NCBI GenBank assembly: GCA_963931925.1
Contig: OZ007575.1
Location: 47,112,221-47,176,220, forward strand
Source: Onchidella celtica
Lineage: Eukaryota; Mollusca; Gastropoda; Systellommatophora; Onchidiidae
Length of the DNA: 64,000 nucleotides
Direction: 5' to 3'
Shown: one piece after another, positions 16,411-64,000 of the stretch
Layout of the letters: each line of letters begins with the position of its first letter
Numbering within the stretch: the stretch's first letter is position 1
Notes under the pieces: generated by a model
Seen by the model: only the letters and a program-made list of their open reading frames with translations
Databases searched by the model: none
What the model was told of the DNA's origin: nothing
Program-made: the position numbers and the translations under genes

Positions 16411-16415
16411 TACAT
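16411..16415 (+). repeat. Target-site duplication (left) of gypsy element A, TACAT
   Basis: The five bases TACAT directly before the left LTR are repeated directly after the right LTR at 33248-33252. This proves that the LTRs at 16416 and 32055 belong to one insertion despite the 16.8 kb between them. Confidence 0.95.
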
Positions 16416-17609
16416 TGTCACGAGTGGAGTGAGTGCAATTAAGGGGATTGCTACAGAGCGGGTGTAGAGTAAGAAGGACTCACAGTAGACAGCAAGTTAA
16501 GCGTGCTGTTGTGAGTAGTGGGGGGGGGGGGGTCTGAATGAGGCGAAAGCGCTGTATAACTATCACTGCAAGTTAGAAGGTCCGACGGAGCGGACCTGTG
16601 AATAAGAGCCCAGCGGGCGGACATAAGTGAAAGCAGTCGGGAGACGGATGAGTGTTGTTCCAGTAATGACTGGTATGTAGAACGTTGATTGATTATTATG
16701 ATTGATGTATTATATTATATTCGTCTATTACCATGATGTAAATAAGTATATGTGAGGAATGTGGAAGTCCTTGATATTGGATATAGCAATGTGCGCCATG
16801 AGCGATAGATGAAAGTGAGTTCATGGATTTGTAGCGCGAGTGAGTAGTGTGTACTCCGATGGAGGTGTGTTACCGTAAGATGTGTGGTGAGTGAAAGGTG
16901 AACTAGTGTGTGTACGCTTCATGGATTGTAAGGAGAGGTGGAGTGAATAGAAATGGTAGGGTATTATACCAATGTAATGTTATTCTTGTAGGTGTCGGGG
17001 ACGGGCCGCAGAGCCCCCTCGATGAGCACAAGGGATAGGCCAGCCTAGGGCCGGAGGCCACACATAGGCCAGAAGTGAGGCTGTCAGTACAGGACAGTAG
17101 AGGCACATAAAGTCGTGGCAGTCAGGCCACGGACAGGGACGTAGATATGAGAGTGAATGAGATACTATATTGTTGCCATGTTGATAGGCTAGTGAACTGA
17201 TACTATGTTGTTGCCATGTTGATGGCTATGGAAATAATAATGTGTTATTGCCCTGCTGAGGTGCTAGGGGAGTGCTAAGGTGTATGACAATAGGGAGGGG
17301 ATATTGAGAGACTGCGGTGCCAGTAAATTATTAATGTGCGATTAAGACCCTGAGGGGAGAGGCTGAGGCCGAAGTGCCTTTAGGAGTGACTACCGGATTG
17401 TGGATCCGCGGGAGAGTGTGTGTGAGAATAAGGCCGTTGTACGGCAGTCATTTCAATAATATAATGTATGTAATTGCGCTATTATATGTATACTTATGTT
17501 TAATAAATGTGTGAGTCTGATGGATTGTTTTGTTAAGTGTTAAACTTGTTTGTTCGTGATTGTCGTCCTGTCATAAACTATTACATCTCCCAGTCTGGGA
17601 TTTGTGACA
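16416..17609 (+). repeat. Left (5') LTR of gypsy element A
   Basis: 1194 bp with TGTCAC...GTGACA termini. It contains a G-run near 16520-16532, an internal pair of TTGTTGCCATGTTGAT repeats (about 17171-17222) and AATAAA at 17502-17507, a candidate LTR polyadenylation signal. It is nearly identical to 32055-33247. Confidence 0.95.
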
Positions 17610-17610
17610 C

Positions 17611-17647
17611 TGGGGGCTCGTCCGTTGTGACACTGGGGGCTCGTCCT
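17611..17647 (+). promoter_or_regulatory. Primer binding site of element A, tandemly duplicated
   Basis: One base after the LTR comes TGGGGGCTCGTCCG, complementary to the 3' end of tRNA-Pro as in many tRNA-Pro-primed retroelements. It is followed by a second copy preceded by a repeat of the LTR end (GTGACACTGGGGGCTCGTCC). Element C has a single copy; element B also has two plus a partial third. Confidence 0.85.
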
Positions 17648-18586
17648 GTTTACCTGTGGTCATTTTGACATTGTGTATTCGTTATATTTAGTTCTTTTTC
17701 TGTTGTGCTAGGAATTCGTGCTGTTGTCTTTGTTCGTGGGATGAATGGAAATTTCATGATGATATGATTTATGTATGTTTATGAATAATAATATGTATTG
17801 ATGCATGTATTGCTATGAATAGGTATTAATGTGTATTTAAACTTTCCAGAGTGTGTGCGTGCAGCCTGAGGAGACGAGCAGCCAGAGCTCCGATTAAAGG
17901 GAGGAGTTTTACTCAAAATTTCAAAAATTGAAAGTTAAGTGGAAATTTTGTACCCTGGATTGAGGGCTGTCTTTTCATCTGTCTGTTTCCCTGTTTTTGC
18001 TGTTTTTGTCGTAATCGATTATACGGGCGGTGGCGCGGGTTTGCTGTGGTGAGCGTAGTTTATCCTCTTCGGGAGGTGGGCTAATCTAGGAACTTCGTTC
18101 ATCACAGTGAACAGTTCTATAGGGACCTGTATTTTTGTTTAGTTGTAGCGTCGATATCTTCTCTGTTCTGCAGGAAGACGTATTCTCTTGTCCCTCTTTC
18201 TACCTATCTGTAGATACGTTCTTTTTTTTCAGACTCTGTTCTTGTTTGTACCGTGTAGTATAATCGGCGTAGTAGGTTGCATTTTTTTCCATTATAGTTT
18301 TTTTTTTGTAGAAGCTTTGTCCTAGTCTGGTTCGTTGTCCTTGACGTACTTGTGGTCCTTCTACTGTATTTCTTCATTCTTGTCGTTTCTATTTTCTTTT
18401 ATAATTAATAGTGCATACATTTTATAGATATAGAATTAGTAGTGCTGTAAAGGTAAATTTCTGAATTGTATTCTGAATTGGGTATTGTTATATCTGGTGT
18501 GATCTCAGGTCTCTGGTCGTGTTGCTAGTGATCATACCGACAGGTTGGTCGTCTTATAATAGATACCATAACCATAAATCGGTGAA
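17648..18586 (+). other. Untranslated leader of element A
   Basis: About 0.94 kb between primer binding site and gag ATG, without a long open frame, T-rich in its second half (18190-18320). Homologous leaders occur in B (28739-29660, reversed) and C (62750-63650). It probably carries packaging signals, but none can be named. Confidence 0.7.
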
Positions 18587-21500
18587 ATGGCGGAACTCCA
18601 ACAACTAATGAAGTTGGGTAAGGAACTTGGCCTGGAGGGAGAAGAGCTACGCGGCTGGATTAAAGAACAGCAGGCAGAAATGCGCGATGGGCGTGCTAAG
18701 GATAGAGAGCGAGAAAAAGAGGCTCAAGAGCGACAGAGAGAAGAGGAAAGAGAGCTTAAGTTAAAGGAGTTAGAAGCTCAGCAACAGGAGAGACAGGATA
18801 ATGAGCAGGAAAGGGAGTTTAAGTTAAAGGAGTTAGAAGATAAGCAGCATGAGAGAGAGGCGCGAATAAGAATCGCGGAGTTGGAAATCAAAAAGAATGC
18901 GCCAACAGAAGCAGTTGAGCGGCAGGTACACAATAAAGGTGGTGTTAGGATTAAGCTCCCTACGTTCGACGACCGGAAGGACGACATAGACGCCTTCCTT
19001 TACAGGTTCGAATTGAACGCACAATTGCAATGGGGGGAAAATAAGGAATTATGGGCCACGTACCTGGCATCGCTATTGCAGGGACGAGCGTTAACCTACT
19101 TTAAAGAGCTACAGCGCGAAGACGTGCAAGATTATGATAAGCTGAAGGCTTTGCTGCTTCGCCGATTTGCGCGTACCGAGGAATATTTCCGGGAGCAGTT
19201 TAGGCGAGCACGTGCAGATACCAGGGAGGACTTTGCTGCCTTCGTCGCGAGACTAACGGAGTATTTCGCGAACTGGGTAGACTTGGCGCATGTGGGCACG
19301 GATTTTGCTAAACTGAAAGACTTAATGATCCGTGACCAGCTGTACGCGTCGTGCCACAAAGATCTGGTGGCTTTCCTGAAAGAGAACGAACCCGCGACGG
19401 TGCAGGAGGCGTCTAAGTTGGCGGAAGCATACCGTACGGCACATCCGTCCAAACCAGTCGCCAGGGCATACGTCCAAGATGCTGGGTACGTCGCCGTTGT
19501 CGAGGGGTCGCCGGCAGGACTTAGGGACAGGTCGCGTCAGCGTGGTGCCTATAGCGGGCAAGCCCAGGGGCAGCGTAGGGGCTATCACCAATCACCGGCA
19601 TATGGATCCGGTAAGTTTGACCGAGCAGGAGGGCTAGGTCGCGGTAATGGCCGGGGGCGAATTGTGACCTTTGCCGATGACCGACGGCATAGGGACTCTA
19701 GTTCCGGTCGCGAGGGGTCACGGGGACCCAGGCCTAGGGCAGCACAGGTAGCGGAGTGTTGGACTTGCGGACGCGTGGGTCACTTTTCCCGCGAGTGTAG
19801 GGCCGCGAAGTGTTGGAACTGCGGAAGAGCAGATCACATCAGCGTGAACTGCCCTGCAGGTAGGATAGCGGCGAACGCGGACAGTAGCTCCAGTCCATGT
19901 TCCCCAAATAAATTTCATCATGCGGCTGCGTGCGTTACATCGGACAACGGAGGCGGACAGTATTCTAAGTGTCCCAGTTGTGAGAAGTTATTATCTTCCG
20001 GTGTTTTACCTTGTGGGAGAAAGATCCCCGTTATAAATTCATGTCATACAGGAGGTGGTCTTAGGGTTTATCCGGGGTTTGTTGGGGACGAACCGGTCTC
20101 GGTTTTACGAGATACAGGATCTACCGTTGTGGGAGTGCATAGGGATTGCATTCGGGATTCACAGCTTACAGGTGAGACTGTCCCGTGCATCCAATTTTCG
20201 GGGGCCATTGAGAAATTACCCATGGCAAGAATAATGATAGATACACCTTTCCTTAGCGGGGAAGTCGAAGCAGTCGTTGGTTGTTTTCCAGGCGCCCAGC
20301 TCATCATTGGGAATGTATCACGGGTGGTTTCCCCTTCCGATGAGAACGTGCAAGCATGGTCGCAATCAAAAGGTATTGACTTTTGCGCCGCGGTCGAAAC
20401 ACGTCGACGGGTAGCTGATAAAGATAACATTAGACCTTTGGCCACGCCAGCGGTCAACCTAGATATCACGCCAGAGCGCTTGGCGAAATTACAAAGGGAG
20501 GACCCATCATTAAACCCATGCTTTGGGGAAGCGCGAACCGAGAAAACGAGGAAATATAAGAACGGGTCGTCCTCCTTTATTGTTCAGGCGGGCATTCTGT
20601 TCCGTAAGTATGTAACGGTGTCCTCAATTTTAAAGCAGGTCGTTGTGCCAGCGTTGCTGATCGCAACAGTATTGCACTTGGCACATGATGTCCCATTAGC
20701 GGGTCATATGGGGATAGCTAGAACCAAAGAAAGGGTTCTTAAAAATTTTTACTGGCCATCGATCCACAGAGATGTGCAAGTCTATTGTAAGACGTGCAGT
20801 GCGTGCCAAAAGACGACGCATAAGGGTCGTACACCCCAGGCTCCTCTTCAGAAGATCCCCACGGTCTCGGAACCGTTTAAAAAGGTCTCGATAGACCTTG
20901 TTGGCCCCATTCACCCAGCGACCGATAGGGGGAATCGATTTTTCTTAACGGTCATATGTAATGCTACGAGATGGCCAGAGGCGGTTCCTCTGCGGACCAT
21001 AACGTCGGAGGCAGTCGCGGAAGCGTTGTTTGCAATTTTCGCTAGGGTAGGAATACCAGAGCAAATTCTGTCTGATAGGGGCGCGCAATTTACGTCGCAG
21101 ATGATGAAGGAATTGTTCCGCTTATTCAGCATACAACCCATCACTACCACCCCTTATCATCCGCAGGCTAATGGCATGTGCGAGAGATTGAACTCGACGT
21201 TAAAGTCGATGCTGCGTAAGGTAGCTGCTGATCGCCCTAAAGATTGGGATAGATATATCCCTGCAGTGTTATTCGCGTACAGAGAGGTACGGCAGGAGTC
21301 AACGGGATTCTCGCCGTTCGAAATGATGTACGGTCGTAGTCCTAGGGGCCCAACTGATGTTCTTCGGGACATGATGACGTCGCCATCATCGGGAGACGAT
21401 GAGCAGATTTCGGTGTTTCAGTACCTTGTTGATTTAAGAGAAAGACTATCTGCAGCGCGCACTATAGCAGAAGAAGCGTCTAGTATCGCTTCGAAAAGAG

Positions 21501-22492
21501 CAAAAGACTATAAAGATAGAGGTTCCAAACTGAGAATTTTTAAGCCAGGAGACAAGGTTCTGTTGTTGTTACCTACGGACCATAATAAGTTATTGATGAC
21601 ATGGAAAGGCCCTTATGTTATTGAGCGAGTTGTTTCAAAGGTAGATTACGCTATCCACATTGATGGAGCGAGTAAGGTTTTCCATGTTAACATGCTACAG
21701 AGATTTTATGAGAGACCACAGTATCTGTGTGCACAGACAAGACCAGAGGAGACTGTCTTCTCTATTGCTTGTACGGGGGTCGTAGACCAGTTGGACTGTG
21801 ACGTAAGCGACACCGAGGCGCAGGAAGAGTTACAAATTCAATTGCCGGAGTTAACTCCGACACAAGGTTACAGGGACGTTAACATTAACCCTGACCTTGC
21901 CAGTTCAAGGAGTAGGGAACTTGAGACCCTGTTAGCGTCATTTCCGGATGTTGTTACGGATTTGCCGGGTCGCACTACAGTGATCGAGCACCAAATAAAG
22001 TTGACTTCGGATAAGCCAGTATTTCTTAGACCGTATCCGTTGCCTTTTTCTTCGAGAGATAGAGTCATAAAGGAAGTTGAGTCAATGTTGAAGTTAGATG
22101 TGATAGAACCATCAACATCGCCGTATTCATCACCCATCGTCCTAGTGAAAAAACTTGATGGATCGGTGCGGTTCTGTATTGATTTTCGAAGATTGAACAC
22201 TATTACGGTAGGCGATAGGGAGCCTATTCCGTTTCAGGAGGAATTAATAGCTTCATTGGCCGGGTCCACGTGGTTTTCCAAGATAGATTTGACGAAAGGG
22301 TATTGGGAAATCCCGCTTACTGAGGAGTCTAAACAATACACGGCGTTCCAAACGCCCATTGGATTATTCCAATTTAAGGTCATGCCATTTGGGTTGGTAA
22401 ACGCGCCAGCGACGTTTGCACGATTAATGAGACTAGTGTTGAAGGACATACCTAATGTCGTGTCGTTCTTTGACGATATAGCATGTCATACG
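18587..22492 (+). CDS. Gag-Pol polyprotein of element A, first part (gag, protease, integrase, most of RT)
   Basis: Codons 1-1302 of a single gag-pol frame. The N-terminus is a Glu/Lys/Arg-rich coiled-coil stretch (about residues 20-105), followed by a gag capsid-like domain. Two zinc knuckles follow (CWTCGRVGHFSREC near 391 and CWNCGRADHISVNC near 408), then an aspartic protease with DTGST near 509. The integrase has an HHCC zinc domain (about 706-740), the D,D-35-E core (Asp in SIDLVGP near 770, Asp of SDRG near 830, Glu near 866) and a GPY/F-type module (WKGPYVI). RT motifs run from about 1196 (FCIDFRRLNT) to FFDD near 1294. At codon 1302 the frame runs into the LTR of element B; the remainder is at 30925-31698. 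A short chimeric extension to 22531 is read-through into B's LTR. Confidence 0.93.
22488..22492 (+). repeat. Target-site duplication (left) of nested element B, ATACG
   Basis: ATACG before the left LTR of B recurs at 30920-30924 immediately after its right LTR. It lies within the RT codons of element A. Confidence 0.95.
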
Positions 22493-23683
22493 TGTCACAA
22501 ATCCCAGACTGGGAAATGTAATAGTTTATGACAGGACGACAATCACGAACAAACAAGTTTAACACTTAACAAAACAACCCATCAGACTCACACATTTATT
22601 AAACATAATTATACATATAATAGCGCAATTACATATATTATATTATTGAAATGACTGCCGTACAACGGCCTTATTCTCACACACACGCTCCCTCGGATCC
22701 ACAATCCGGTAGTTACTCCTAAAGGCACTTCGGCCTCAGCCTCTCCCCTCAGGGTCTTAATAGTACATTAATGATTCACTGGCACCGCAGTCTCTCAATA
22801 TCACCTTCCTATTGTCATACACCTTAGCACTCCCCTAGCACCTCAGCAGGGCAATAACACATTATTATTTCCATAGCCATCAACATGGCAACAACATAAT
22901 ATCAGTTCACTAGCCTATCAACATGGCAACAACATAGTATCTCATTCACTCTCATATCTACGTCCCTGCCCGTGGCCTGACTGCCACGACTTTATGTGCC
23001 TCCACTGTCCTACACTGACAGCCTCACTTCTGGCCTATGTGTGGCCTCCGGCCCTATGCTGGCCTATCCCCTGTGCTCATCGAGGTGGCTCTGCGGCCCG
23101 TCCCCGACACCTACAAGAATAACATTACATTGGTATAATACCCTACCATTTCTATTCACTCCACCTCTCCTTACAACCCATGAAGCGTACACACACTAGT
23201 TCACCTTCCACTCACCACACATCTTACGGTAACACACTTCCATCGGAGTACACACTACTCACTCGCGCTACAAATCCATGAACTCACTTTCATCTATCGC
23301 TCGTGGCGTACATTGCTATATCCAATATCAAGGACTTCCACATTCCTCACATATACTTATTCACATCATGGTAATAGACGAATATAATATAATACATCAA
23401 TCATAATAATCAATCAACATTCTACGTACCAGTCATAACTGGAAAGACTTTCTCCTAGTCTTCTCGACTGCTCCCTTTATGTCTGCCCGATGGGCTATTA
23501 TTCACAGATCCGCTCCCTAGGACCTTCTAACTTGCAGTGATAGTTATACAGCGCTTTCGCCTCCTTCAGACCCCCTCCCACTACTCACAACAGCACTCTT
23601 AACTTGCTGTCTACTGTGAGTCATTCTTACTCTACACCGGCTCTGTAGCAATCCCCTTAATTGCACTCACTCCACTCGTGACA
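22493..23683 (-). repeat. 3' LTR of element B (left in window)
   Basis: 1191 bp, TGTCAC...GTGACA termini, reverse of the A-type LTR. It differs from the other B LTR at about 23309 (T/C) and at two sites near 23603 and 23639. Confidence 0.95.
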
Positions 23684-23703
23684 TCATCCCCCACCCCAAA
23701 AAT
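23684..23703 (-). promoter_or_regulatory. Polypurine tract of element B
   Basis: On the minus strand a run reading TTTGGGGTGGGGGATGA lies directly before the 3' LTR, the expected position of the plus-strand primer. The same tract precedes the right LTR of A at about 32034-32054. Confidence 0.8.
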
Positions 23704-24037
23704 ATTATTGCAATTAATTTCAAATCGCATCAAGATGACTGTCAACGAGTGAGCGTGAGCAATACCTACACTAGAAAATGACCTAGCAGTTCCCCTAGTA
23801 TATAAAATACCGAAATCAGGGGAAAATATGGGGATCAATATGGCCTGCAATATGCATATATGTGTCACATCATAAATAGCTAACTAAACACAATACTTAA
23901 TACAGAATCAAAAACCATTCAACCTATCAACCATTCTTCATATCATATTTATAATGTCAATATTTTAAAGTCGACTCATTCACACAGATCCTGTCAATGT
24001 TCCTGTCCTCCGATGTATAAGCTGCTGAACTCTTGCC

Positions 24038-27000
24038 CTAGGCTCGACTAAGGTAGTCGGCGATATGATTGCTGGTTCCTGGAATTGGTTGAATAACGAA
24101 GGTATACGGCTGCAAAGCCCATGCCCATCTAGACAAGCGTGGGCTGGACGAACGATTCTTCGACAAAAATGTCAGTGGCTTGTGGTCTGTCTGGATACAA
24201 AATTCTCGTCCCATGAGATAACGTCCTAGTTTCTGGACGGACCAGACAATGGCAAGACACTCACGCTCTATCACAGAATACTTTCTTTCTCTCTGCAATA
24301 ACTTCCTACTGACATAACATACAGGATGGAGACATTCGTTCTTCTCCTGTAGAAGACAAGCGCCGACACCAGAGTCCGACGCATCCGTTCTGAGGATAAA
24401 ATTAGATCGAAAATCGGGTAATATCAAAATGGGTGACGATGATAATGCTGTCACCAAATTATCAAATGATGTCTGACATTCAGACGTCCACTGGACCTTA
24501 TCGGGTTGTCCCTTCTTAGTAAGGTCAGTAAGAGAAGATGACAAGGAGGAAAAATTTGGAATGAACTTTCTGTAATAATTTAAAATTCCCACTAAGCTTC
24601 TGACTTGTTTCTTTGTTTTTGGGATTTGCAACCCTACTAACTTGTCAATTTTTGTTTCTTCAGGTCTCTGAACACCTCTACCCACAATATGTCCTAAGAA
24701 TACTATCTCAGGACATGCCAATTCCATCTTTGCGGGTTTAGCGGTTAACCCAAAATGACGTAATCGTTGAAAAATTACTGTTAGTGTCTGAATATGATCA
24801 GACCATGTCGACGTATGGCATGCTATATCGTCAAAGAATGACACGACATTAGGTATGTCCTTCAACACTAATCTCATTAATCGTGCAAACGTCGCTGGCG
24901 CGTTTACCAACCCAAATGGCATGACCTTAAATTGGAATAATCCAATGGGCGTTTGAAACGCCGTGTATTGTTTAGACTCCTCAGTAAGCGGGATTTCCCC
25001 ATACCCTTTCGTCAAATCTATCTTGGAAAACCACGTGGACCCGGCCAATGAAGCTATTAATTCCTCCTGAAACGGAATAGGCTCCCTATCGCCTATCGTA
25101 ATAGTGTTCAGTCTTCGAAAGTCAATACAGAACCGCACCGATCCATCAAGTTTTTTCACGAGGACGATGGGTGATGAATACGGCGATGTTGATGGTTCTA
25201 TCACATCTAACTTCAACATTGACTCAACTTCCTTTATGACTCTATCTCTCGAAGAGAAAGGCAGCGGATACGGTCTAAGAAATACTGGCTTATCCGAAGT
25301 CAACTTTATTTGGTGCTGGATCACCGTAGTGCGACCCGGCAAATCCGTAACAACATCCGGAAATGACGCTAACAGGGTCTCAAGTTCCCTACTCCTTGAA
25401 CTCGTAAGGTCAGGGTTAATTTTTTCGTCCCTGTAACCTTGTGTCGCAGTTAACTCCGGCAATTGAATTTGTAACTCCTCCTGCGCCTCGGTGTCGCTTA
25501 CGTCACAGTCCAACTGGTCTACGACCCCCGTACAAGCCGTAGAGAAGACAGTCTCCTTTGGTCTTGTCTGTGCACACAGATACTGTGGTCTCTCATAAAA
25601 TCTCTGTAGCATATTAACATGGAAAACCTTACTCGCTCCATCAATGTGGATAGCGTAATCTACCTTCGAAACAACTCGCTCAATAACATAAGGACCTTTC
25701 CATGTCATCAATAACTTATTATGGTCCGTAGGTAACAACAACAGAACCTTGTCTCCTGGCTTAAAAATTCTGAGTTTGGAACCTCTGTCTTTATAGTCTT
25801 TTGCTCTTTTCGAAGCGATACCCGAAGCTTCTTCTGCTATAGTGCGCGCTGAAGATAGTCTTTCTCTTAAATCAACAAGGTACTGAAACACCGAAATCTG
25901 CTCATCGTCTCCCGATGATGGCGACGTCATCATGTCCCGAAGAACATCAGTTGGGCCCCTAGGACTACGACCGTACATCATTTCGAACGGCGAGAATCCC
26001 GTTGACTCCTGCCGTACCTCTCTGTACGCGAATAACACTGCAGGGATATATCTATCCCAATCTTTAGGGCGATCAGCAGCTACCTTACGCAGCATCGACT
26101 TTAACGTCGAGTTCAATCTCTCGCACATGCCATTAGCCTGCGGATGATAAGGGGTGGTAGTGATGGGTTGTATGCTGAATAAGCGGAACAATTCCTTCAT
26201 CATCTGCGACGTAAATTGCGCGCCCCTATCAGACAGAATTTGCTCTGGTATTCCTACCCTAGCGAAAATTGCAAACAACGCTTCCGCGACTGCCTCAGAC
26301 GTTATGGTCCGCAGAGGAACCGCCTCTGGCCATCTCGTAGCATTACATATGACCGTTAAGAAAAATCGATTCCCCCTATCGGTCGCTGGGTGAATGGGGC
26401 CAACAAGGTCTATCGAGACCTTTTTAAACGGTTCCGAGACCGTGGGGATCTTCTGAAGAGGAGCCTGGGGTGTACGACCCTTATGCGTCGTCTTTTGGCA
26501 CGCACTGCACGTCTTACAATAGACCTGCACATCTCTGTGGATCGATGGCCAGTAAAAATTTTTAAGAACCCTTTCTTTGGTTCTAGCTATCCCCATATGA
26601 CCCGCTAATGGGACATCATGTGCCAAATGCAATACTGTTGCGATCAGCAACGCTGGCACAACGACCTGCTTTAAAATGGAGGACACCGTTACATACTTAC
26701 GGAACAGAATGCCCCCCTGGACAAAAAAAGAAGATGACCCGTTTTTATATTTCCTCGTTTTCTCGGTTCGCGCTTCCCCAAAACATGGGTTTAATGATGG
26801 GTCCTCCCTTTGCAATCTCGCCAAGCGCTCTGGCGTGATATCTAGGTTGACCGCTGGCGTCGCCAAAGGTCTAATCTTATCTTTATCTGCTACCCGCCGA
26901 CGTGTTTCGACCGCGGCGCAAAAGTCAATACCTTTTGATTGCGACCATGCTTGCACGTTCTCATCGGAAGGGGAAACCACCCGTGATACATTCCCAATGA

Positions 27001-28738
27001 TGAGCTGGGCGCCTGGAAAACAACCAACGACTGCTTCGACTTCCCCGCTAAGGAAAGGTGTATCTATCATTATTCTTGCCATGGGTAATTTCTCAATGGC
27101 CCCCGAAAATTGGATGCACGGGACAGTCTCACCTGTAAGCTGTGAATCCCGAATGCAATCCCTATGCACTCCCACAACGGTAGATCCTGTATCTCGTAAA
27201 ACCGAGACCGGTTCGTCCCCAACAAACCCCGGATAAACCCTAAGACCACCTCCTGTATGACATGAATTTATAACGGGGATCTTTCTCCCACAAGGTAAAA
27301 CACCGGAAGATAATAACTTCTCACAACTGGGACACTTAGAATACTGTCCGCCTCCGTTGTCCGATGTAACACACGCAGCCGCATGATGAAATTTATTTGG
27401 GGAACATGGACTGGAGCTACTGTCCACGTTCGCCGCTATCCTACCTGCAGGGCAGTTCACGCTGATGTGATCCGCTCTACCGCAGTTCCAACACTTCGCG
27501 GCCCTACACTCGCGCGAAAAGTGACCCGCGCGTCCGCAAGTCCAACACTCCGCTCCCTGTGCTGCCCTAGGCCTGGGTCCCCGTGACCCCTCGCGACCGG
27601 AACTAAAGTCCCTATGCCGTCGGTCATCGGCAAAGGTCACAAATCGCCCCCGGCCATTACCGCGACCTAGCCCTCCTGCTCGGTCAAACTTACCGGATCC
27701 ATATGCCGGTGATTGGTGATAGCCCCTGTGCTGCCCCTGGGCTTGCCCGCTATAGGCACCACGCTGACGCGACCTGTCCCTAAGTCCTGCCGGCGACCCC
27801 TCGACAACGGCGACGTATCCAGCATCTTGGACGTACGCCCTGGCGACTGGTTTGGACGGATGCGCCGTACGGTATGCCTCCGCCAACTTAGACGCCTCCT
27901 GCACCGTCGCGGGTTCGTTCTCTTTCAGGAAAGCCACCAGATCTTTGTGGCACGACGCGTATAGCTGGTCACGGATCATTAAGTCTTTCAGTTTAGCAAA
28001 GTCCGTGCCCACATGCGCCAAGTCTACCCAGTTCGCGAAATACTCCGTTAGTCTCGCGACGAAGGCAGCAAAGTCCTCCCTGGTATCTGCACGTGCTCGC
28101 CTAAACTGCTCCCGGAAATATTCCTCGGTACGCGCAAATCGGCGAAGCAGCAAAGCCTTCAGCTTATCGTAATCTTGCACGTCTTCGCGCTGTAGCTCTT
28201 TAAAGTAGGTTAACGCTCGCCCCTGCAATAGTGATGCCAGGTACGTGGCCCATAATTCCTTATTTTCCCCCCATTGCAATTGTGCGTTCAGTTCGAACCT
28301 GTAAAGGAAGGCGTCTATGTCGTCCTTCCGGTCGTCGAACGTAGGGAGCTTAATCCTAACGCCACCTTTATTGTGTACCTGCCGCTCAACTGTTTCTGTT
28401 GGCGCATTCTTTTTGATTTCCAACTCGGCGATCTTTACTTGCGCCTCTATCTCCTTTAACCTTATCTCCCTTTCCTGCTCCCTATCCTGTCTCTCCTGTC
28501 GCTGAGCTTCTAACTCCTTTAACTTAAACTCTCTTTCCTGCTCCTTATCCTTAGCCTCTCTCTCCTGTTGCTTAAACTCCCTTTCCTCCTCCTGAGCCTT
28601 AGCCTCTTTTTCTCGCTCTCTATCCTTAGCACGCTCATCGCGCAAATCCGCCTGCTGTTCTTTAATCCAGCCGCGTAGCTCTTCTCCCTCCAGGCCAAGT
28701 TCCTTACCCAACTTCATTAGTTGTTGGAGTTCCGCCAT
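24038..28738 (-). CDS. Gag-Pol polyprotein of element B (gag-PR-IN-RT-RNase H), intact
   Basis: An uninterrupted 1566-residue frame. Domains by approximate residue: charged coiled-coil repeats 20-110; gag 120-330; two CCHC knuckles 396-425; protease DTGST 516; integrase HHCC domain 712-745 and D,D-35-E core 777-873; WKGPYVI GPY/F module near 1020; RT with FCIDFRRLNT near 1203 and FFDD near 1301; RNase H with TDAS (1451), the IERE segment and QTDHKPL; C-terminal IADYLSRA. Integrase precedes RT, as in Ty1/copia and Gmr1-like elements, while the RT, GPY/F and RNase H sequences are Ty3/gypsy-like. One oddity is Gly in KGYGEIPL where element A has Trp. No frameshift separates gag from pol, so how gag is made in excess is not evident. 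Confidence 0.95.
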   Translation of the reverse strand: MAELQQLMKLGKELGLEGEELRGWIKEQQADLRDERAKDREREKEAKAQEEEREFKQQEREAKDKEQEREFKLKELEAQRQERQDREQEREIRLKEIEAQVKIAELEIKKNAPTETVERQVHNKGGVRIKLPTFDDRKDDIDAFLYRFELNAQLQWGENKELWATYLASLLQGRALTYFKELQREDVQDYDKLKALLLRRFARTEEYFREQFRRARADTREDFAAFVARLTEYFANWVDLAHVGTDFAKLKDLMIRDQLYASCHKDLVAFLKENEPATVQEASKLAEAYRTAHPSKPVARAYVQDAGYVAVVEGSPAGLRDRSRQRGAYSGQAQGQHRGYHQSPAYGSGKFDRAGGLGRGNGRGRFVTFADDRRHRDFSSGREGSRGPRPRAAQGAECWTCGRAGHFSRECRAAKCWNCGRADHISVNCPAGRIAANVDSSSSPCSPNKFHHAAACVTSDNGGGQYSKCPSCEKLLSSGVLPCGRKIPVINSCHTGGGLRVYPGFVGDEPVSVLRDTGSTVVGVHRDCIRDSQLTGETVPCIQFSGAIEKLPMARIMIDTPFLSGEVEAVVGCFPGAQLIIGNVSRVVSPSDENVQAWSQSKGIDFCAAVETRRRVADKDKIRPLATPAVNLDITPERLARLQREDPSLNPCFGEARTEKTRKYKNGSSSFFVQGGILFRKYVTVSSILKQVVVPALLIATVLHLAHDVPLAGHMGIARTKERVLKNFYWPSIHRDVQVYCKTCSACQKTTHKGRTPQAPLQKIPTVSEPFKKVSIDLVGPIHPATDRGNRFFLTVICNATRWPEAVPLRTITSEAVAEALFAIFARVGIPEQILSDRGAQFTSQMMKELFRLFSIQPITTTPYHPQANGMCERLNSTLKSMLRKVAADRPKDWDRYIPAVLFAYREVRQESTGFSPFEMMYGRSPRGPTDVLRDMMTSPSSGDDEQISVFQYLVDLRERLSSARTIAEEASGIASKRAKDYKDRGSKLRIFKPGDKVLLLLPTDHNKLLMTWKGPYVIERVVSKVDYAIHIDGASKVFHVNMLQRFYERPQYLCAQTRPKETVFSTACTGVVDQLDCDVSDTEAQEELQIQLPELTATQGYRDEKINPDLTSSRSRELETLLASFPDVVTDLPGRTTVIQHQIKLTSDKPVFLRPYPLPFSSRDRVIKEVESMLKLDVIEPSTSPYSSPIVLVKKLDGSVRFCIDFRRLNTITIGDREPIPFQEELIASLAGSTWFSKIDLTKGYGEIPLTEESKQYTAFQTPIGLFQFKVMPFGLVNAPATFARLMRLVLKDIPNVVSFFDDIACHTSTWSDHIQTLTVIFQRLRHFGLTAKPAKMELACPEIVFLGHIVGRGVQRPEETKIDKLVGLQIPKTKKQVRSLVGILNYYRKFIPNFSSLSSSLTDLTKKGQPDKVQWTSECQTSFDNLVTALSSSPILILPDFRSNFILRTDASDSGVGACLLQEKNECLHPVCYVSRKLLQRERKYSVIERECLAIVWSVQKLGRYLMGREFCIQTDHKPLTFLSKNRSSSPRLSRWAWALQPYTFVIQPIPGTSNHIADYLSRA

Positions 28739-29660
28739 TTCACAGATTTATGGTTATGGTATATATTTAAAAAACGGCTAACCTGTCGGTATGATAACTA
28801 ACGACACGACCAGAGACCTGAGATCACACCAGATATAACAATACCCAATTGTCCCAAATACAATTCAGAAATTTACCTTTACAGCACAACTAATTCTATA
28901 TCTATAAAATGCCTAGCACTATTAATTATAAAAGAAACTAGAAACGACAAGAATGAAGAAATACAGTAGAAGGACCACAAGTACGTCAAGGACAACGAAC
29001 CAGACTAGGACAAAGCTTCTACAAAAAAAAACTATAATGGAAAAAAAAAATGCAACCTACTACGCCGATTACACAACACGGTACGACCGAGAACAGAGTC
29101 TGAAAAAAAAGAACGTATCTATAGATAGGTAGAAAGAGGGACAAGAGAATACGTCTTCCTGCGGAACAGAGAAGATATCGACGCTACAACTAAACAATAT
29201 TACAGGTCCCTACAGAACTGTTCACTGTGATGAACGAAGTTCCAAAGTTTACCACACCTTTTTAAAAGGATAAACTAAGTTCAACACAGCAAACCCGCGC
29301 CACCGCCCGTATAATCTATAACGACAACAAAAACAGCAAAAACAGGGAAAAAGACAGATTAAAGGAACAGCCCACAATCCAGGGCACAAAAATTTTGACT
29401 TTTACTTAACTTTGACCCTAGATTTCAATTTCTCCCCTTCCTCGGAGCTCTGGCTGCTTGACCTCTACAGGCTGGCACGCACACTCTGCAGAAATTTAAG
29501 TACACATTAATACATATTCATAGCAATACATGCATCAATACATATTATTACTCATAAACATACATAAATCATATCATCATGAAATTTCCATTCATCCCAC
29601 GAACAAAGACAACAGCACGAATTCCTAGCACAACAGAAAAACAACTAGATATAACGAATA
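28739..29660 (-). other. Untranslated leader of element B
   Basis: About 0.9 kb between primer binding site and the gag ATG, homologous to the leaders of A and C. It contains only short frames. Confidence 0.7.
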
Positions 29661-29728
29661 CACAATGTCAAAATGACCACAGTGTCACAACGGACGAGCC
29701 CCCAGTGTCACAACGGACGAGCCCCCAG
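29661..29728 (-). promoter_or_regulatory. Primer binding site of element B, duplicated plus partial third unit
   Basis: On the minus strand the LTR is followed by TGGGGGCTCGTCCGTT, a repeat of the LTR end GTGACAC, a second identical site, and then another GTGACACTG. The site is complementary to the tRNA-Pro 3' end over its first 14 bases. Confidence 0.82.
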
Positions 29729-30919
29729 TGTCACAAATCCCAGACTGGGAAATGTAATAGTTTATGACAGGACGACAATCACGAACAAACAAGTTTAACA
29801 CTTAACAAAACAACCCATCAGACTCACACATTTATTAAACATAATTATACATATAATAGCGCAATTACATATATTATATTATTGAAATGACTGCCGTACA
29901 ACGGCCTTATTCTCACACACACGCTCCCTCGGATCCACAATCCGGTAGTTACTCCTAAAGGCACTTCGGCCTCAGCCTCTCCCCTCAGGGTCTTAATAGT
30001 ACATTAATGATTCACTGGCACCGCAGTCTCTCAATATCACCTTCCTATTGTCATACACCTTAGCACTCCCCTAGCACCTCAGCAGGGCAATAACACATTA
30101 TTATTTCCATAGCCATCAACATGGCAACAACATAATATCAGTTCACTAGCCTATCAACATGGCAACAACATAGTATCTCATTCACTCTCATATCTACGTC
30201 CCTGCCCGTGGCCTGACTGCCACGACTTTATGTGCCTCCACTGTCCTACACTGACAGCCTCACTTCTGGCCTATGTGTGGCCTCCGGCCCTATGCTGGCC
30301 TATCCCCTGTGCTCATCGAGGTGGCTCTGCGGCCCGTCCCCGACACCTACAAGAATAACATTACATTGGTATAATACCCTACCATTTCTATTCACTCCAC
30401 CTCTCCTTACAACCCATGAAGCGTACACACACTAGTTCACCTTCCACTCACCACACATCTTACGGTAACACACTTCCATCGGAGTACACACTACTCACTC
30501 GCGCTACAAATCCATGAACTCACTTTCATCTATCGCTCGTGGCGCACATTGCTATATCCAATATCAAGGACTTCCACATTCCTCACATATACTTATTCAC
30601 ATCATGGTAATAGACGAATATAATATAATACATCAATCATAATAATCAATCAACATTCTACGTACCAGTCATAACTGGAAAGACTTTCTCCTAGTCTTCT
30701 CGACTGCTCCCTTTATGTCTGCCCGATGGGCTATTATTCACAGATCCGCTCCCTAGGACCTTCTAACTTGCAGTGATAGTTATACAGCGCTTTCGCCTCC
30801 TTCAGACCCCCTCCCACTACTCACAACAGCACGCTTAACTTGCTGTCTACTGTGAGTCATTCTTACTCTACACCCGCTCTGTAGCAATCCCCTTAATTGC
30901 ACTCACTCCACTCGTGACA
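29729..30919 (-). repeat. 5' LTR of element B (right in window)
   Basis: 1191 bp and nearly identical to 22493-23683. It is followed at 30920 by the second ATACG, after which the RT frame of element A resumes. Confidence 0.95.
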
Positions 30920-30924
30920 ATACG

Positions 30925-31698
30925 TCGACATGGTCTGATCATATTCAGACACTAACAGTAATTTTTCAACGATTACGCCAGTTTGGGCTAACTGCTAAAC
31001 CCGCAAAGATGGATTTGGCATGTCCAGAGATAGTATTCTTAGGACATATCGTGGGTAGAGGTGTTCAGAGACCTGAAGTAACAAAAATTGACAAGTTAGT
31101 AGGGTTGCAAATCCCAAAAACAAAGAAACAAGTCAGAAGCTTAGTGGGTATTTTAAATTATTACAGAAAGTTCATTCCAAATTTTTCCTCCTTGTCATCT
31201 TCTCTTACTGACCTTACTAAGAAGGGACAACCCGATAAGGTCCAGTGGACGTCTGAATGTCAGACAGCATTTGATAATTTGGTGACAGCATTATCATCGT
31301 CACCCATTCTGATATTACCCGATTTTCGATCTAATTTTATCCTCAGAACGGATGCGTCGGACTCTGGTGTCGGCGCTTGTCTTCTACAGGAGAAGAACGA
31401 ATGTCTCCATCCTGTATGTTATGTCAGTAGGAAGTTATTGCAGAGAGAAAGAAAGTATTCTGTGATAGAGCGTGAGTGTCTTGCCATTGTCTGGTCCGTC
31501 CAGAAATTGGGACGTTATCTCATGGGACGAGAATTTTGTATCCAGACAGACCACAAGCCACTGACATTTTTGTCGAAGAATCGTTCGTCCAGCCCACGCT
31601 TGTCTAGATGGGCATTGGCTTTGCAGCCGTATACCTTCGTTATTCAACCAATTCCAGGAACCAGCAATCATATCGCCGACTACCTTAGTCGAGCCTAG
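30925..31698 (+). CDS. Gag-Pol polyprotein of element A, second part (end of RT, RNase H)
   Basis: Continues the frame broken at 22492: the codon after the left ATACG is TCG at 30925. It encodes the RT thumb/connection (PEIVFLGHIVG) and an RNase H domain with TDASDSGVG, the IERECLAIVW segment and QTDHKPLTFL, which supply the acidic catalytic residues. The protein ends IADYLSRA at the TAG. Without B the polyprotein would be about 1559 residues, close to B's 1566. Confidence 0.92.
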   Translation, partial: STWSDHIQTLTVIFQRLRQFGLTAKPAKMDLACPEIVFLGHIVGRGVQRPEVTKIDKLVGLQIPKTKKQVRSLVGILNYYRKFIPNFSSLSSSLTDLTKKGQPDKVQWTSECQTAFDNLVTALSSSPILILPDFRSNFILRTDASDSGVGACLLQEKNECLHPVCYVSRKLLQRERKYSVIERECLAIVWSVQKLGRYLMGREFCIQTDHKPLTFLSKNRSSSPRLSRWALALQPYTFVIQPIPGTSNHIADYLSRA

Positions 31699-32054
31699 GG
31701 CAAGATTTCAGGAGCTTATACATCGGAGGACAGGAACATTGACAGGATCTGTGTGAATGAGTCGACTTTAAAATATTGACATTATAAATATGATATGAAG
31801 AATGGTTGATAGGTTGATTGGCTTTTGATTCTGTATTAAGTATGGTGTTTAGTTAGCTATTGATGATGTGACACATATATGCATATTGCAGACCATATTG
31901 ATCCCCATGTTTTCCCCCGATTCCGGTACTTTATATACTAGGGGAACTGCTAGGTCATTTTTTTTAGTGTACGTATTGCTCACGCTCACTCGTTGACAGT
32001 CATCTTGATGCGATTTGAAATTAATTGCATTAATTTTTTTGGGGTGGGGGATGA
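31699..32054 (+). other. 3' untranslated region and polypurine tract of element A
   Basis: Non-coding DNA between the gag-pol stop and the right LTR, ending in the tract GGGGTGGGGGATGA (about 32041-32054). Confidence 0.8.
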
Positions 32055-33247
32055 TGTCACGAGTGGAGTGAGTGCAATTAAGGGGATTGCTACAGAGCGG
32101 GTGTAGAGTAAGAAGGACTCACAGTAGACAGCAAGTTAAGCGTGCTGTTGTGAGTAGTGGGGGGGGGGGGTCTGAATGAGGCGAAAGCGCTGTATAACTA
32201 TCACTGCAAGTTAGAAGGTCCGACGGAGCGGACCTGTGAATAAGAGCCCAGCGGGCGGACATAAGTGAAAGCAGTCGGGAGACGGATGAGTGTTGTTCCA
32301 GTAATGACTGGTATGTAGAACGTTGATTGATTATTATGATTGATGTATTATATTATATTCGTCTATTACCATGATGTAAATAAGTATATGTGAGGAATGT
32401 GGAAGTCCTTGATATTGGATATAGCAATGTGCGCCATGAGCGATAGATGAAAGTGAGTTCATGGATTTGTAGCGCGAGTGAGTAGTGTGTACTCCGATGG
32501 AGGTGTGTTACCGTAAGATGTGTGGTGAGTGAAAGGTGAACTAGTGTGTGTACGCTTCATGGATTGTAAGGAGAGGTGGAGTGAATAGAAATGGTAGGGT
32601 ATTATACCAATGTAATGTTATTCTTGTAGGTGTCGGGGACGGGCCGAAGAGCCCCCTCGATGAGCACAAGGGATAGGCCAGCCTAGGGCCGGAGGCCACA
32701 CATAGGCCAGAAGTGAGGCTGTCAGTACAGGACAGTAGAGGCACATAAAGTCGTGGCAGTCAGGCCACGGACAGGGACGTAGATATGAGAGTGAATGAGA
32801 TACTATATTGTTGCCATGTTGATAGGCTAGTGAACTGATACTATGTTGTTGCCATGTTGATGGCTATGGAAATAATAATGTGTTATTGCCCTGCTGAGGT
32901 GCTAGGGGAGTGCTAAGGTGTATGACAATAGGGAGGGGATATTGAGAGACTGCGGTGCCAGTAAATTATTAATGTGCGATTAAGACCCTGAGGGGAGAGG
33001 CTGAGGCCGAAGTGCCTTTAGGAGTGACTACCGGATTGTGGATCCGCGGGAGAGTGTGTGTGAGAATAAGGCCGTTGTACGGCAGTCATTTCAATAATAT
33101 AATGTATGTAATTGCGCTATTATATGTATACTTATGTTTAATAAATGTGTGAGTCTGATGGATTGTTTTGTTAAGTGTTAAACTTGTTTGTTCGTGATTG
33201 TCGTCCTGTCATAAACTATTACATCTCCCAGTCTGGGATTTGTGACA
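32055..33247 (+). repeat. Right (3') LTR of gypsy element A
   Basis: 1193 bp with TGTCAC...GTGACA termini. Visible differences from the left LTR are one G fewer in the G-run and A instead of C near 32647. TACAT follows at 33248-33252. Confidence 0.95.
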
Positions 33248-33265
33248 TACATAACCTCCTTTAAG

Positions 33266-33615: not shown

Positions 33616-33897
33616 GCTTTGACGGAAGAAAAAATAAAGGCCATGCAAATTTAATATGATAATTCAATGCCTTGAATGAAAGCAAACTTGTCCAACTTCG
33701 TCCGAGTTGTGTCAAGGTAGGAACGGTGACATAATTTGCATGGCAATAATTGTTTGAAATTTCCATATTGGTATACATTTTTTTGTGGCTGTAGGGAAAA
33801 CAATACTGCATAATCAAGAGACACATAAATGGATCTGGTACACAAATACATAATATTTATTTCCATGAAGCATGATATTGTCACAAATCGCTTGCTC
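33616..33897. other. Intergenic DNA, nothing recognised
   Basis: No exon, repeat family or RNA gene could be assigned. Confidence 0.5.
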
Positions 33898-34185
<288 letters not shown>

Positions 34186-34651
34186 CCTCCAAAATATAAT
34201 TCATTTGGCCCCTGAAGTTAAAATGTGTACATTAAGGGACATAATAAGGAGAAAAGAACATAATAAACATGATAATATTTTGACTAAGTGAGAAATGAAT
34301 CGAATCTGTCTTTATGAAAAAATTATGTATCTCGAACCAATGGCTGAGAATCGTTGCCATGATTATATTTGTCGGACTGAAAATCAAAACGCACCAAATA
34401 GTCACTGAACCTCATCAGCAAGGTGTGCTCCACAGAAAGTCAGTATCGATAGTACCTTCAGCTATTTACATCTGAAAAATGGAAGTCTCATAACTGTTTA
34501 GAAAAAAAAAATGAAAATGGCATCAACATACATTTTTCAGTAATAACATCAAAAAACTTCATTTTCCTCAAAAAATATACACCTCCGAATCATCAACTCA
34601 TCTTGTATAACTGTAAAAAACATCTCAGACATAATGCCACATTGATTCATT

Positions 34652-46041: not shown

Positions 46042-46101
<60 letters not shown>

Positions 46102-46297
46102 GCACACACGCACACACACGCACGCACACGCGCACACACACACCCCCACACACACACACACCCACACGCACACACACACACCCACACACACACACACACC
46201 CACACACACACACACACGCACGCACACACACACACACACACACCCATACACACACACGCGCGCACGCACACACACACACACACACATACACACACAG
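46042..46297. repeat. (CA)n microsatellite
   Basis: 256 bp of CA dinucleotides with CG and CC interruptions. Open frames reading HTHTHT or CVCVCV across it are artefacts. Confidence 0.97.
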
Positions 46298-59800: not shown

Positions 59801-59904
59801 CAGGACTGTGCATTCAGGCAAGAAATTCTAAGATTGGTGACATATTCTTGGATCATGTTAGAGCAGTCTATGTATATCAAGTTGTTATTGTTGATGACAG
59901 GCAA
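56834..59904 (-). mobile_element. CR1/L2-like LINE with intact ORF2 (endonuclease and reverse transcriptase)
   Basis: An open frame without stops from 59904 to 56998 (968 codons; it opens at a TTG, and the first in-frame ATG is at 59856). The endonuclease shows LRISCLNAQSC, ILCITESWLQ, RRGGGIAFIY, FIITGDFNLHF and ISDHFLITID. The RT shows LLDLSAAFDTLDHNIL, FGVPQGSVLGPILFTLY and the catalytic HQYADDSQIY. The C-terminal block GPRVWNEIPLDVR follows. The 3' UTR ends in a hairpin tail (56876-56899) and (TTA)n at 56834-56850. ORF1 was not recognised. The clade call (CR1/L2 group of the Jockey superfamily) rests on motif style. A near-identical truncated copy at 14380-15441 shows recent activity of the family. 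Confidence 0.9.
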
Positions 59905-61528: not shown

Positions 61529-62724
61529 TGTCACGAGTGGAGTGAGCGATAGTTAATAATTACGGGGGGGGGGGAAAGGAGGAGAGTAAAATTAACGCAC
61601 GTAGACAGGTAAGTTAAAGCGTGCATGTTGTGAGTGGTGGGGGGTCTGAATGAGGCGAAAGCGCTGTATTACTATCACTGCAAGTTAGAAGGTCCTACTG
61701 AACGGACGCTAGTAAGAGCCCAGCGGGCGAACATAAGGGGAGCAGTCGGAAGACGGATGAGAGTGTTTTTTCCAGTGATGACTGGTAGGTAGAACGTTGA
61801 TTGATAATTATGATTGATGTATTATATTATATTCGTCTATTACCATGATGTAAATAAGTATATGTGAGGAATGTGGAAGTCCTTGATATTGGATATAGCA
61901 ATGTGCGCCATGAGCGATAGATGAAAGTGAGTTCATGGATTTGTAGCACGAGTGAGTATTGTGTACTCCGATGGAGGTGTGTTACCGTAAGATGTTTGGT
62001 GAGTGAAAGGTGAACTATTGTGTGTACGCTTCATGGGCTGTAAGGAGAGGTGGAGTGAATAGAAATGGTAGGGTATTATACCAATGTAATGTTATTCTTG
62101 TAGGTGTCGGGGACGGGCCAAAGAGCCACCTCGGTGAGCACAGGGGATAGGCCAGCATAGGGCCGGAGGCCACACATAGGCCAAGAGTGAGGCTGTCGGT
62201 GCAGGACAGTAGAGGCACATAAAGTCGTGGCAGTCAGGCCACGGACAGGGACGTAGATATGAGCGTGAATGTGATAATGTACTATTGCCATGTTGATGGG
62301 CTATTGAAATGATAATGTGCTATTGCCATGTTGATGGGCTATTGAAATGATAATGTGCTATTGCCCTGCTGAGGTGCTAGTGGAATGCTAAGGTGTATGA
62401 CAATAGGAAGGTGATATTGAGAGACTGCGGTGCCAGTGAATTATTAATGTGCTATTAAGACCCTGAGGGGAGAGGCGGAGGCCGAAGTGTCTTTAGGAAG
62501 TAACTACCGGGTTGTGGATCCGAGGAAGAGTGCATGTGGGAATAAGGCCGTTGTACGGCAGTTAAATTCAATAATATAATGTATGTAATTGCGCTATTAT
62601 CTGTATAATTATGTTTAATAAATGTGTGAGTCTGATGGGTTGTTCTGTTAAGTGTTAAGCTTGTTCGTTCGTGATTGTTGTCCTGTCATAACTTATTACA
62701 TCTCCCAGTCTGGGATTTGTGACA
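61529..62724 (+). repeat. 5' LTR of element C
   Basis: 1196 bp with TGTCAC...GTGACA termini. The internal CTATTGCCATGTTGATGGG module is present in three imperfect tandem units (about 62270-62370), against two in A and B. Confidence 0.92.
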
Positions 62725-62725
62725 C

Positions 62726-62739
62726 TGGGGGCTCGTCCT
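62726..62739 (+). promoter_or_regulatory. Primer binding site of element C (single copy)
   Basis: TGGGGGCTCGTCCTG follows the LTR after one base and leads straight into the leader, without the duplication seen in A and B. Its first 13 bases are complementary to the tRNA-Pro 3' end. Confidence 0.85.
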
Positions 62740-63650
62740 GTTTACCTGTGGTCATTTTGACATTGTGTATTCGTTATATCTTGTTATTTTTCTGTTGTGG
62801 TAGGAATTCGTGCTGTTGTCCTTGTTCGTGGGATGAATGGGAATTTCATGATGATATGATTTATGTATATTTATGAATATGTATTGATGTATGTATTTTT
62901 ATGAATAGGTATTAATGTGTACTTAAATTTCTGCAGAGAGTGTGTGTGCCAGCCTGAGGAGACAAGCAGCCAGAGCTCCGGCATACGTCAAGTTAAATAA
63001 AACGCTGAGTGAAAGTGAAGTAAAAGTCAAAATTTTTGTGCCCTGGATTGTGGGCTGTTCCTTTAATCTGTCTTTTTCTCTGTTTTTGCTGTTTTCGTTT
63101 GCTGTGTTGAACCTAGTTTATCCTTTAAAAAAAAAGGTGTGATAAACTTGGAACTTCGTTCATCACAGTGAACAGTTCTATAGGGACCTGTAATTTTGTT
63201 TAGTTGTAGCGTCGATATCTTCTCTGTTCTGCAGGAAGACGTATTCTCTTGTCCCTCGTTCTTCCCTATCTGTAGATACGTTCTTTTTTTTCAGACTCTG
63301 TTCTTGTTCGCACCTTGTAGTGTAATCGGCGTAGTTAGGTTGCATTTTTTTTCCATTATATTTTCTTTTTTAGGTCTTTGTTCTAGTCTGGTTCGTTGTC
63401 CTTGACGTACTTGTGGTCCTTCTACTGAATTTCCTTATTCTTGTCTTTTCTACTCTTTTTTATTATTAATAGTGCTATACATTTAATGAATATAGAATTA
63501 GTTAGGAAGTAGGTAAATTTCTGAATTGTATTTGAGACAATTGGGTATTGTTATATCTGGTGTGATCTCAGGTCTCTGGTCGTGTCGTTAGTGATCATAC
63601 CGACAGGTTAGCCGTTTTCATAATATATACCGTAACCATAAATCTGTGAA
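62740..63650 (+). other. Untranslated leader of element C
   Basis: About 0.9 kb homologous to the leader of A (GACATTGTGTATTCGTTATAT near 62759 and the CGTCGATATCTTCTC block near 63209). Confidence 0.7.
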
Positions 63651-64000
63651 ATGGCGGAACTCCAACAACTAATGAAGTTGGGTAAGGAAATTGGCCTGGA
63701 GGGAGAGGAGCTACGCGGCTGGATTAAAGAGCAGCAGGCAGAGTTGCGCGATGAGCGTGCTAAGGATAGAGAGCGAGAGGAGCAGGAGAGGGAGTTAAAG
63801 TTAAAGGAGATAGAAGCTCAAGAGCGGGAGACAGACGCGCGAGTAAGAATCGCGGAATTAGAACTCAAGAAGAATACGCCAACGGAAACAGTTGAGCGGC
63901 AGGTACACAATAAAGGTGGCGTTAGGATTAAGCTCCCTACGTTCGACGACCGGAAGGACGACATAGACGCCTTCCTTTACAGGTTCGAACTGAACGCACA
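63651..64000 (+). CDS. Gag-Pol polyprotein of element C, N-terminal part only
   Basis: Starts MAELQQLMKLGKEIGLEG like A and B and stays open to the window end (about 116 codons). The charged coiled-coil region is shorter than in A and B, with one ELKLKEIEAQ unit, before the conserved GGVRIKLPTFDDRKDD and AFLYRFELN gag segments. Confidence 0.92.
   Translation, partial: MAELQQLMKLGKEIGLEGEELRGWIKEQQAELRDERAKDREREEQERELKLKEIEAQERETDARVRIAELELKKNTPTETVERQVHNKGGVRIKLPTFDDRKDDIDAFLYRFELNA

What the first reader, a model, noticed from the sequence alone, without database searches (positions are those of the whole stretch)
18587..31698. Ty3/gypsy elements with integrase upstream of reverse transcriptase (Gmr1-type order)
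Seen directly: in both A and B the single frame runs CCHC knuckles, DTGST protease, HHCC plus D,D-35-E integrase with a GPY/F module, then RT with FFDD, then RNase H. Known: Ty3/gypsy elements normally place integrase last, and the copia-like order within gypsy was described for Gmr1-like elements. Inference: this is a Gmr1-clade family with at least three copies here, two with recent insertion signatures and one with an intact frame.
Basis: partly seen in the sequence, partly recalled or inferred. Interest (0 to 1): 0.72.

Follow-up and report, generated by a model that had tools for sequence, protein, structure and literature searches.

The report
Integrase-first jumping genes, repeated primer sites
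These are recently active gypsy-type jumping genes with a known but unusual gene order, and they carry an unexpected, variable tandem repeat exactly where copying of the element starts.

Summary
Element A (+, 16416-33247) is split by a nested copy B (-, 22493-30919). Both have near-identical LTRs and 5-bp target-site duplications. B carries one 1566-codon frame in the order capsid, CCHC, protease, integrase, RT, RNase H. RT and integrase match Ty3-type enzymes, not copia. The host genome holds at least two more integrase-first families. All three carry a SCAN-type capsid, a published mark of Gmr1-like elements, and they group apart from conventional-order gypsy families (integrase tree 100/100, RT-RH tree only 72/95). 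The Gmr1 reading is supported; the gene order is known.

The new part lies outside the finding. The tRNA-Pro primer site sits in a 23-nt unit that includes the last 8 LTR bases. It occurs 1-5 times in the 74 of 80 sampled copies that could be parsed, with G at all 67 inner junctions. At least 150 genome copies share an identical integrase segment (capped list). Some primer sites elsewhere carry 19-24 or 37-40 nt of tRNA-Pro sequence, ending near known reverse-transcriptase stops. I infer footprints of irregular plus-strand transfer. That mechanism and the host (probably a bivalve) are inferred, not shown.

The parts
16416..17609 (+). A, 5' LTR (1194 bp)
16411..16415 (.). A, target-site duplication TACAT (left)
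17602..17647 (+). A, LTR end plus two tRNA-Pro primer-site units
   Evidence: tRNA sequence from a passage of PMC12217144
18587..22492 (+). A, gag to first part of RT (frame broken by B)
30925..31698 (+). A, rest of RT and RNase H
32055..33247 (+). A, 3' LTR (1193 bp)
33248..33252 (.). A, target-site duplication TACAT (right)
29729..30919 (-). B, 5' LTR (1191 bp)
29680..29736 (-). B, primer-site array, period 23, 2.5 copies
24038..28738 (-). B, single gag-pol frame, 1566 codons, integrase before RT
27839..28141 (-). B, SCAN-type capsid region
26069..26686 (-). B, integrase piece used for searches
24089..25201 (-). B, RT and RNase H piece
22493..23683 (-). B, 3' LTR (1191 bp)
22488..22492 (.). 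B, target-site duplication ATACG (left)
30920..30924 (.). B, target-site duplication ATACG (right)
61529..64000 (+). C, third copy (5' LTR 61529-62724, one primer-site unit), cut by the window end and deleted in pol beyond it

Best explanation
A, B and C are copies of a recently amplified Gmr1-like Ty3/gypsy LTR retrotransposon. One gag-pol polyprotein is made in the order capsid (SCAN-type), nucleocapsid, protease, integrase, RT, RNase H. The RNA is copied from a tRNA-Pro primer paired to the site next to the 5' LTR, and integrase inserts the DNA with 5-bp target duplications. The repeated primer-site units, and the 37-40-nt tRNA-like tracts in some relatives, are most likely footprints of irregular plus-strand transfer: RT copies more or less of the tRNA and the strand then joins out of register. 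Shown here: anatomy, order, recency, array variation, tRNA-like tracts. Inferred: priming and the transfer mechanism. The confidence given is for the Gmr1-like retrotransposon reading; for the transfer mechanism see the section on the most novel reading.
For: Anatomy. Ty3-type enzymes. Grouping of integrase-first rows: INT 100/100 (8 rows), RT-RH 72/95 (9 rows). SCAN capsid in 3 of 3 integrase-first families tested. Recency: 16 of 20 sampled LTR pairs could be aligned, all with 0-3 substitutions, 15 of the 16 with a perfect 5-bp duplication. A against B: 57 synonymous and 36 nonsynonymous-codon base differences over 1469 codons (sum of the pieces). Array: 74 of 80 copies parsed, with 1, 2, 3, 4, 5 units in 38, 14, 15, 5, 2; inner junction base G in 67 of 67, last unit T 39, A 30, G 5; G is the next tRNA-Pro-complementary base in the primer printed in PMC12217144. 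tRNA-like tract lengths of 12 picked loci plus L149: 37-40 exact in 6, one (L153) stopping at 29 and resuming after one mismatch, 19-24 in 6, near the stop sites 58, 55, 54 and 37 described for HIV-1 in PMC13191261 (passages).
Against: RT-RH support for one integrase-first group is modest and long branches are flagged. No Gmr1 reference was in the tree. The inner G is also what slippage from one founding duplication would give. The predicted 27-nt intermediate unit was found in 0 of 173 held sequences, and the genome-wide search for it did not complete. The 12 long-tract loci were picked by me from 125 hits of a pattern that demands 17 tRNA bases, and they hold near-duplicates. The host tRNA-Pro gene was not seen.
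Confidence: 0.85

Rival explanations
1. The element is Gmr1-like, but the primer-site arrays are ordinary repeat slippage or recombination from one founding 23-nt duplication and have nothing to do with copying of the tRNA.
For: Every inner junction is the same (G in 67 of 67), as inheritance from one founder predicts; mixed arrays with C and T spacers look recombined; no non-G 23-nt junction followed by a further primer site and no 27-nt unit in 173 held sequences.
Against: Arrays occur with three leader types whose last unit mostly ends T or A; separate 37-40-nt tRNA-like tracts exist, two of them (L159, L163) with this family's LTR end and leader.
Confidence: 0.45
2. The long tRNA-like tracts are old, inherited primer sites kept by selection or refreshed within subfamilies, not marks of recent over-extension.
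For: Pairs L153/L154, L155/L156 and L157/L158 share flanks.
Against: L159 and L163 join the same leader at slightly different points about 330 bases beyond the LTR.
Confidence: 0.35
3. Integrase-first order arose independently here, in a mollusc gypsy clade such as a MolGy clade, and is not Gmr1 by descent.
For: A survey of nine mollusc genomes plus database species lists 21 gypsy clades and no Gmr1 (PMC6238403 Table 1); the host is perhaps a mollusc (recall); no Gmr1 sequence in my tree.
Against: SCAN-type capsid in 3 of 3 integrase-first families, as stated for Gmr1-like elements (PMC4592553, PMC4131045); single gag-pol frame of Gmr size (PMC11117352).
Confidence: 0.1
4. A copia element, or an assembly artefact.
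For: Integrase-first order is typical of copia.
Against: Ty3-type RT-RH and integrase; same order in L082, L083, L086 and L087; exact target duplications.
Confidence: 0.02

Closest known systems
Gmr1-like Ty3/gypsy clade (Gadus morhua retrotransposon 1 and relatives)
   Same: Integrase upstream of RT, single gag-pol frame (1506-1634 aa in pufferfish families, PMC11117352, passages; 1566 here), SCAN-type capsid
   Different: LTRs of about 1.19 kb here against 337-518 bp in those fish families; variable primer-site arrays, not seen in the passages and listings I read; host apparently a protostome
Conventional Ty3/gypsy (Ty3 and the like)
   Same: RT, RNase H and integrase sequence types
   Different: Integrase last; L080, L081 and L085 in the same genome show that order
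Ty1/copia
   Same: Integrase-first order
   Different: Ty1 integrase matches far more weakly than Ty3 or foamy virus integrase
Sireviruses with multiple polypurine tracts (PMC2829016, passages)
   Same: A repeated motif that primes reverse transcription
   Different: There it is the plus-strand primer, not the tRNA primer site
Primer over-extension sequences of lentiviruses and spumaviruses (PMC13191261, passages)
   Same: tRNA-complementary bases beyond the 18-nt primer site
   Different: Tracts here reach tRNA position 37-40 (my numbering); the review counts the HIV-1 product ending at 37 as not active for transfer

Membership tests
Ty3/gypsy (Metaviridae) | RT-RNase H and integrase of Ty3 type | tested here: met
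Gmr1-like clade | Integrase upstream of RT | tested here: met
   for A and B; for L082, L083, L086, L087
Gmr1-like clade | SCAN-homologous capsid | tested here: met
   PF02023 above its cut-off in A, B, L151 and L152
Gmr1-like clade | Groups with Gmr1 itself in RT, RNase H and integrase trees | not testable with these tools
   no Gmr1 sequence held; only same-genome families and Ty3 were compared
Gmr1-like clade | Integrase-first families form one group against conventional ones | tested here: met
   INT 100/100; RT-RH 72/95, weaker, long branches flagged; small unrooted trees
Ty1/copia | RT and integrase of copia type | tested here: not met
   Ty1 integrase 2.3e-8 against Ty3 9.4e-20; best RT-RH hits are Ty3 entries

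The most novel reading that the evidence does not exclude
In this animal, plus-strand strong-stop DNA that over-runs the tRNA primer to near position 37, or stops after about 14 bases, is productive. It transfers out of register and leaves heritable marks: tRNA-derived tracts of 37-40 nt and tandem primer-site units, each preceded by the LTR-end bases that integrase uses. Reverse transcription of this family therefore tolerates or exploits primer-site variation reported as inactive for strand transfer in HIV-1.
Probability: 0.33. Interest if true: 0.65.

Novelty: new variant of a known kind. Interest (0 to 1): 0.45.

Why it matters
The gene order is known, so confirming it adds mainly a host record: apparently a bivalve, from a phylum whose 2018 LTR-element survey lists no Gmr1 clade. 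The primer-site arrays and tRNA-like tracts matter more. If they are what I infer, integrated copies record where reverse transcriptase stopped on the primer tRNA and where the strand landed, so that an in vitro question about tRNA modifications can be read from a genome.

Tried and rejected
The IMG/VR search with the integrase piece gave 7 pattern matches, none confirmed as a relative. Rfam gave no match at gathering thresholds in the window; ARAGORN found no tRNA in the window or in the 12 small loci. The RVT_1 genome search brought in L001-L008, none with a tblastn match to the B integrase, RT, RNase H or capsid pieces. The capsid piece had no convincing solved-structure match (best E 0.95).

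Priming from a distal unit of an array should leave an extra unit in the 3' LTR. It was seen in 0 of 14 multi-unit copies whose 3' LTR end could be read: A, B and 8 copies, with the duplication straight after the LTR, and 4 of the 8 ends fetched (followed by other sequence, duplication not checked). Set aside: copy 6 (tandem), copy 14 (no 3' LTR start found) and 4 unreadable ends.

I proposed a 27-nt intermediate unit because the LTR end shares GGGATTTG with the tRNA-Pro complement; 0 found in 173 held sequences, genome-wide search did not complete. Paper searches for repeated or duplicated primer sites and for over-extension showed no retrotransposon case in their listings; one search returned mostly phosphate-buffered saline, so absence from print is not shown.
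Full report
Check of the observation. Pfam on separate pieces gives, 5' to 3', a SCAN-type capsid, CCHC knuckles, the H2C2 and core domains of integrase, then RVT_1 and RNase H, in both A and B. The HHCC, D,D35E and GPY motifs are in both; the protease motif was read in A and FFDD matched in B. A is bounded by LTRs at 16416-17609 and 32055-33247, with 1 substitution in 1193, one gap, and the target duplication TACAT. B is bounded by LTRs at 22493-23683 and 29729-30919, with 3 substitutions in 1191 and the duplication ATACG. B sits inside A's RT region. So B inserted after A, and both insertions are recent. Copy C at 61529 is a third member, but its continuation beyond the window (L009) has lost most of pol, and its 3' LTR is interrupted by about 1.2 kb that begins like a family LTR.

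Gypsy, not copia. RT-RNase H matches Ty3 best in the PDB (4ol8, 2.1e-71). Integrase matches foamy virus (2.3e-21) and Ty3 (9.4e-20), with Ty1 integrase at 2.3e-8.

Same-genome comparison. The window lies in a 1.14-Gb genome of 43 contigs. By my count of the listing, 114 of 150 lie in frames of at least 1,526 codons. All but one of the listed places are on contigs C1-C4, an effect of the cap, so the count is a lower bound. Eight regions were fetched around RNase H hits. L083, L087, L082 and L086 have integrase before RT. L084 shows the same order but matches only 92 residues of integrase, and was left out of the trees. L080, L081 and L085 have integrase last. In trees of 8 (INT) and 9 (RT-RH, with Ty3) rows the integrase-first rows form one side of a branch, with 100/100 and 72/95 support; the program warns of long branches. 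The capsids of the two divergent integrase-first families also hit SCAN above its cut-off.

Membership. The Gmr1 clade is described by integrase upstream of RT (PMC8220671, PMC6238403, PMC3587641; passages). [quoted passage not shown] Fish Gmr families have single gag-pol frames of 1506-1634 aa (PMC11117352, passages). The window family fits these. A tree with the Gmr1 sequence was not possible.

Recency and selection. For 20 copies picked across the listing, LTR pairs of 16 could be aligned: 0-3 substitutions each, 15 of 16 with a perfect 5-bp duplication. Copies 4, 10, 11 and 14 could not be measured; copy 5's 5' LTR covers only 734 bases. Between A and B, summed over pieces from position 18851 on, there are 57 synonymous and 36 nonsynonymous-codon base differences in 1469 codons, which fits purifying selection while they spread. 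In one search, by my reading of the list, 16 of 150 matches fall in 7 same-strand clusters spaced 7.06-7.27 kb, which is one internal region plus one LTR. For copy 6 the 3' LTR is followed directly by primer-site sequence, so these look like tandem elements sharing LTRs.

Primer-site arrays. After the LTR comes one base and then TGGGGGCTCGTCC, the complement of the tRNA-Pro 3' end; the sequence is given for human tRNA-Pro-UGG in PMC12217144 (one passage). In A this stretch, with the last 8 LTR bases, is present twice; in B twice plus a partial copy; in C once. Of 80 copies sampled, 74 could be parsed: 38 with 1 unit, 14 with 2, 15 with 3, 5 with 4, 2 with 5. Only exact units were counted. Of the 6 not parsed, L126 shows an array cut by the fetch and 5 show no site in range. 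The base after the primer site is G in 67 of 67 inner units, but T 39, A 30, G 5 in last units; three leader types account for 70 of the 74. G is the next tRNA-complementary base. In multi-unit copies the 3' LTR carries no extra unit (0 of 14 readable), so the unit next to the LTR seems to be the one used.

Long tRNA-like tracts. A pattern for the tRNA-Pro 3' end occurs 125 times in the genome, with 0 in the reversed control. I picked twelve of the listed places, some of them near pairs. None is a tRNA gene by ARAGORN; all twelve look like primer sites read on the other strand. Exact tRNA-like lengths are 40, 39, 37 (four), 29 followed after one mismatch by the rest up to 40 (L153), 24, 23 (two), 20 and 19; L149 gives 24. 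L153/L154, L155/L156 and L157/L158 are near-duplicates. L159 and L163 carry this family's LTR end and rejoin its leader about 330 bases further on, at slightly different points. A review lists HIV-1 plus-strand products ending at tRNA positions 58, 55, 54 or 37 and counts the one ending at 37 as not active (PMC13191261, passages). By my numbering (recalled) the two length classes here correspond to positions 53-58 and 37-40.

Mechanism. Shown: anatomy, order, recency, arrays, tracts. From established knowledge: tRNA priming, strand transfers, integrase action. Inferred: irregular plus-strand transfer made the arrays and tracts. Plain slippage from a single founding duplication explains the arrays about as well. 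The tracts are harder to explain without copying of the tRNA, unless long primer sites are old and inherited. The host tRNA-Pro gene was not seen.

Host. The COX1 contig reads with AGA and AGG as serine, which fits the invertebrate mitochondrial code. My recall that the protein looks like that of a heterodont bivalve was not tested. If so, the family adds Gmr1-like elements to molluscs, where a survey lists none among 21 gypsy clades (PMC6238403, passages and Table 1). Gmr1-like elements in protostomes were already reported from crustaceans and an annelid.

Verdict. The finding is real and correctly read, and the gene order is known. The variable primer-site arrays and the tRNA-like tracts are the part worth following.

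Noticed in passing
window 17602-17647, 29680-29736, 62717-62740: Tandem 23-nt units holding the LTR end and the tRNA-Pro primer site, varying from 1 to 5 among parsed genome copies.
   Followed up: yes
L153-L164, L149: Primer sites with 19-24 or 37-40 nt of tRNA-Pro-like sequence (L153 with one mismatch); L159 and L163 belong to the window family and rejoin its leader about 330 bases downstream.
   Followed up: partly
G000 C1:1663796-1678536, C3:36557799-36572849 and five other clusters: Tandem copies of the element spaced 7.06-7.27 kb, consistent with shared LTRs; in the three clusters with two or more parsed members the primer-site arrays are the same.
   Followed up: partly
L009 2899-4122: About 1.2 kb inserted in the 3' LTR of copy C, starting TGTCACGAG and flanked by a 5-bp overlap, perhaps a solo LTR of a relative.
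   Followed up: no
window 33823-34200 and 46000-46340: Short-period tandem repeat arrays (8-nt period, and mixed 8 to 14 nt).
   Followed up: no
window 14333-15277, 47134-49227, 51762-54530, 56998-59904: Pieces with RT, some with an endonuclease domain, of non-LTR retrotransposon type; 14368-15441 and 56834-57907 are inverted copies at 99%.
   Followed up: no
window 17597-17609 (LTR end): The last bases of the LTR, GGGATTTGTGACA, share GGGATTTG with the tRNA-Pro complement, which may have helped misaligned transfer.
   Followed up: partly
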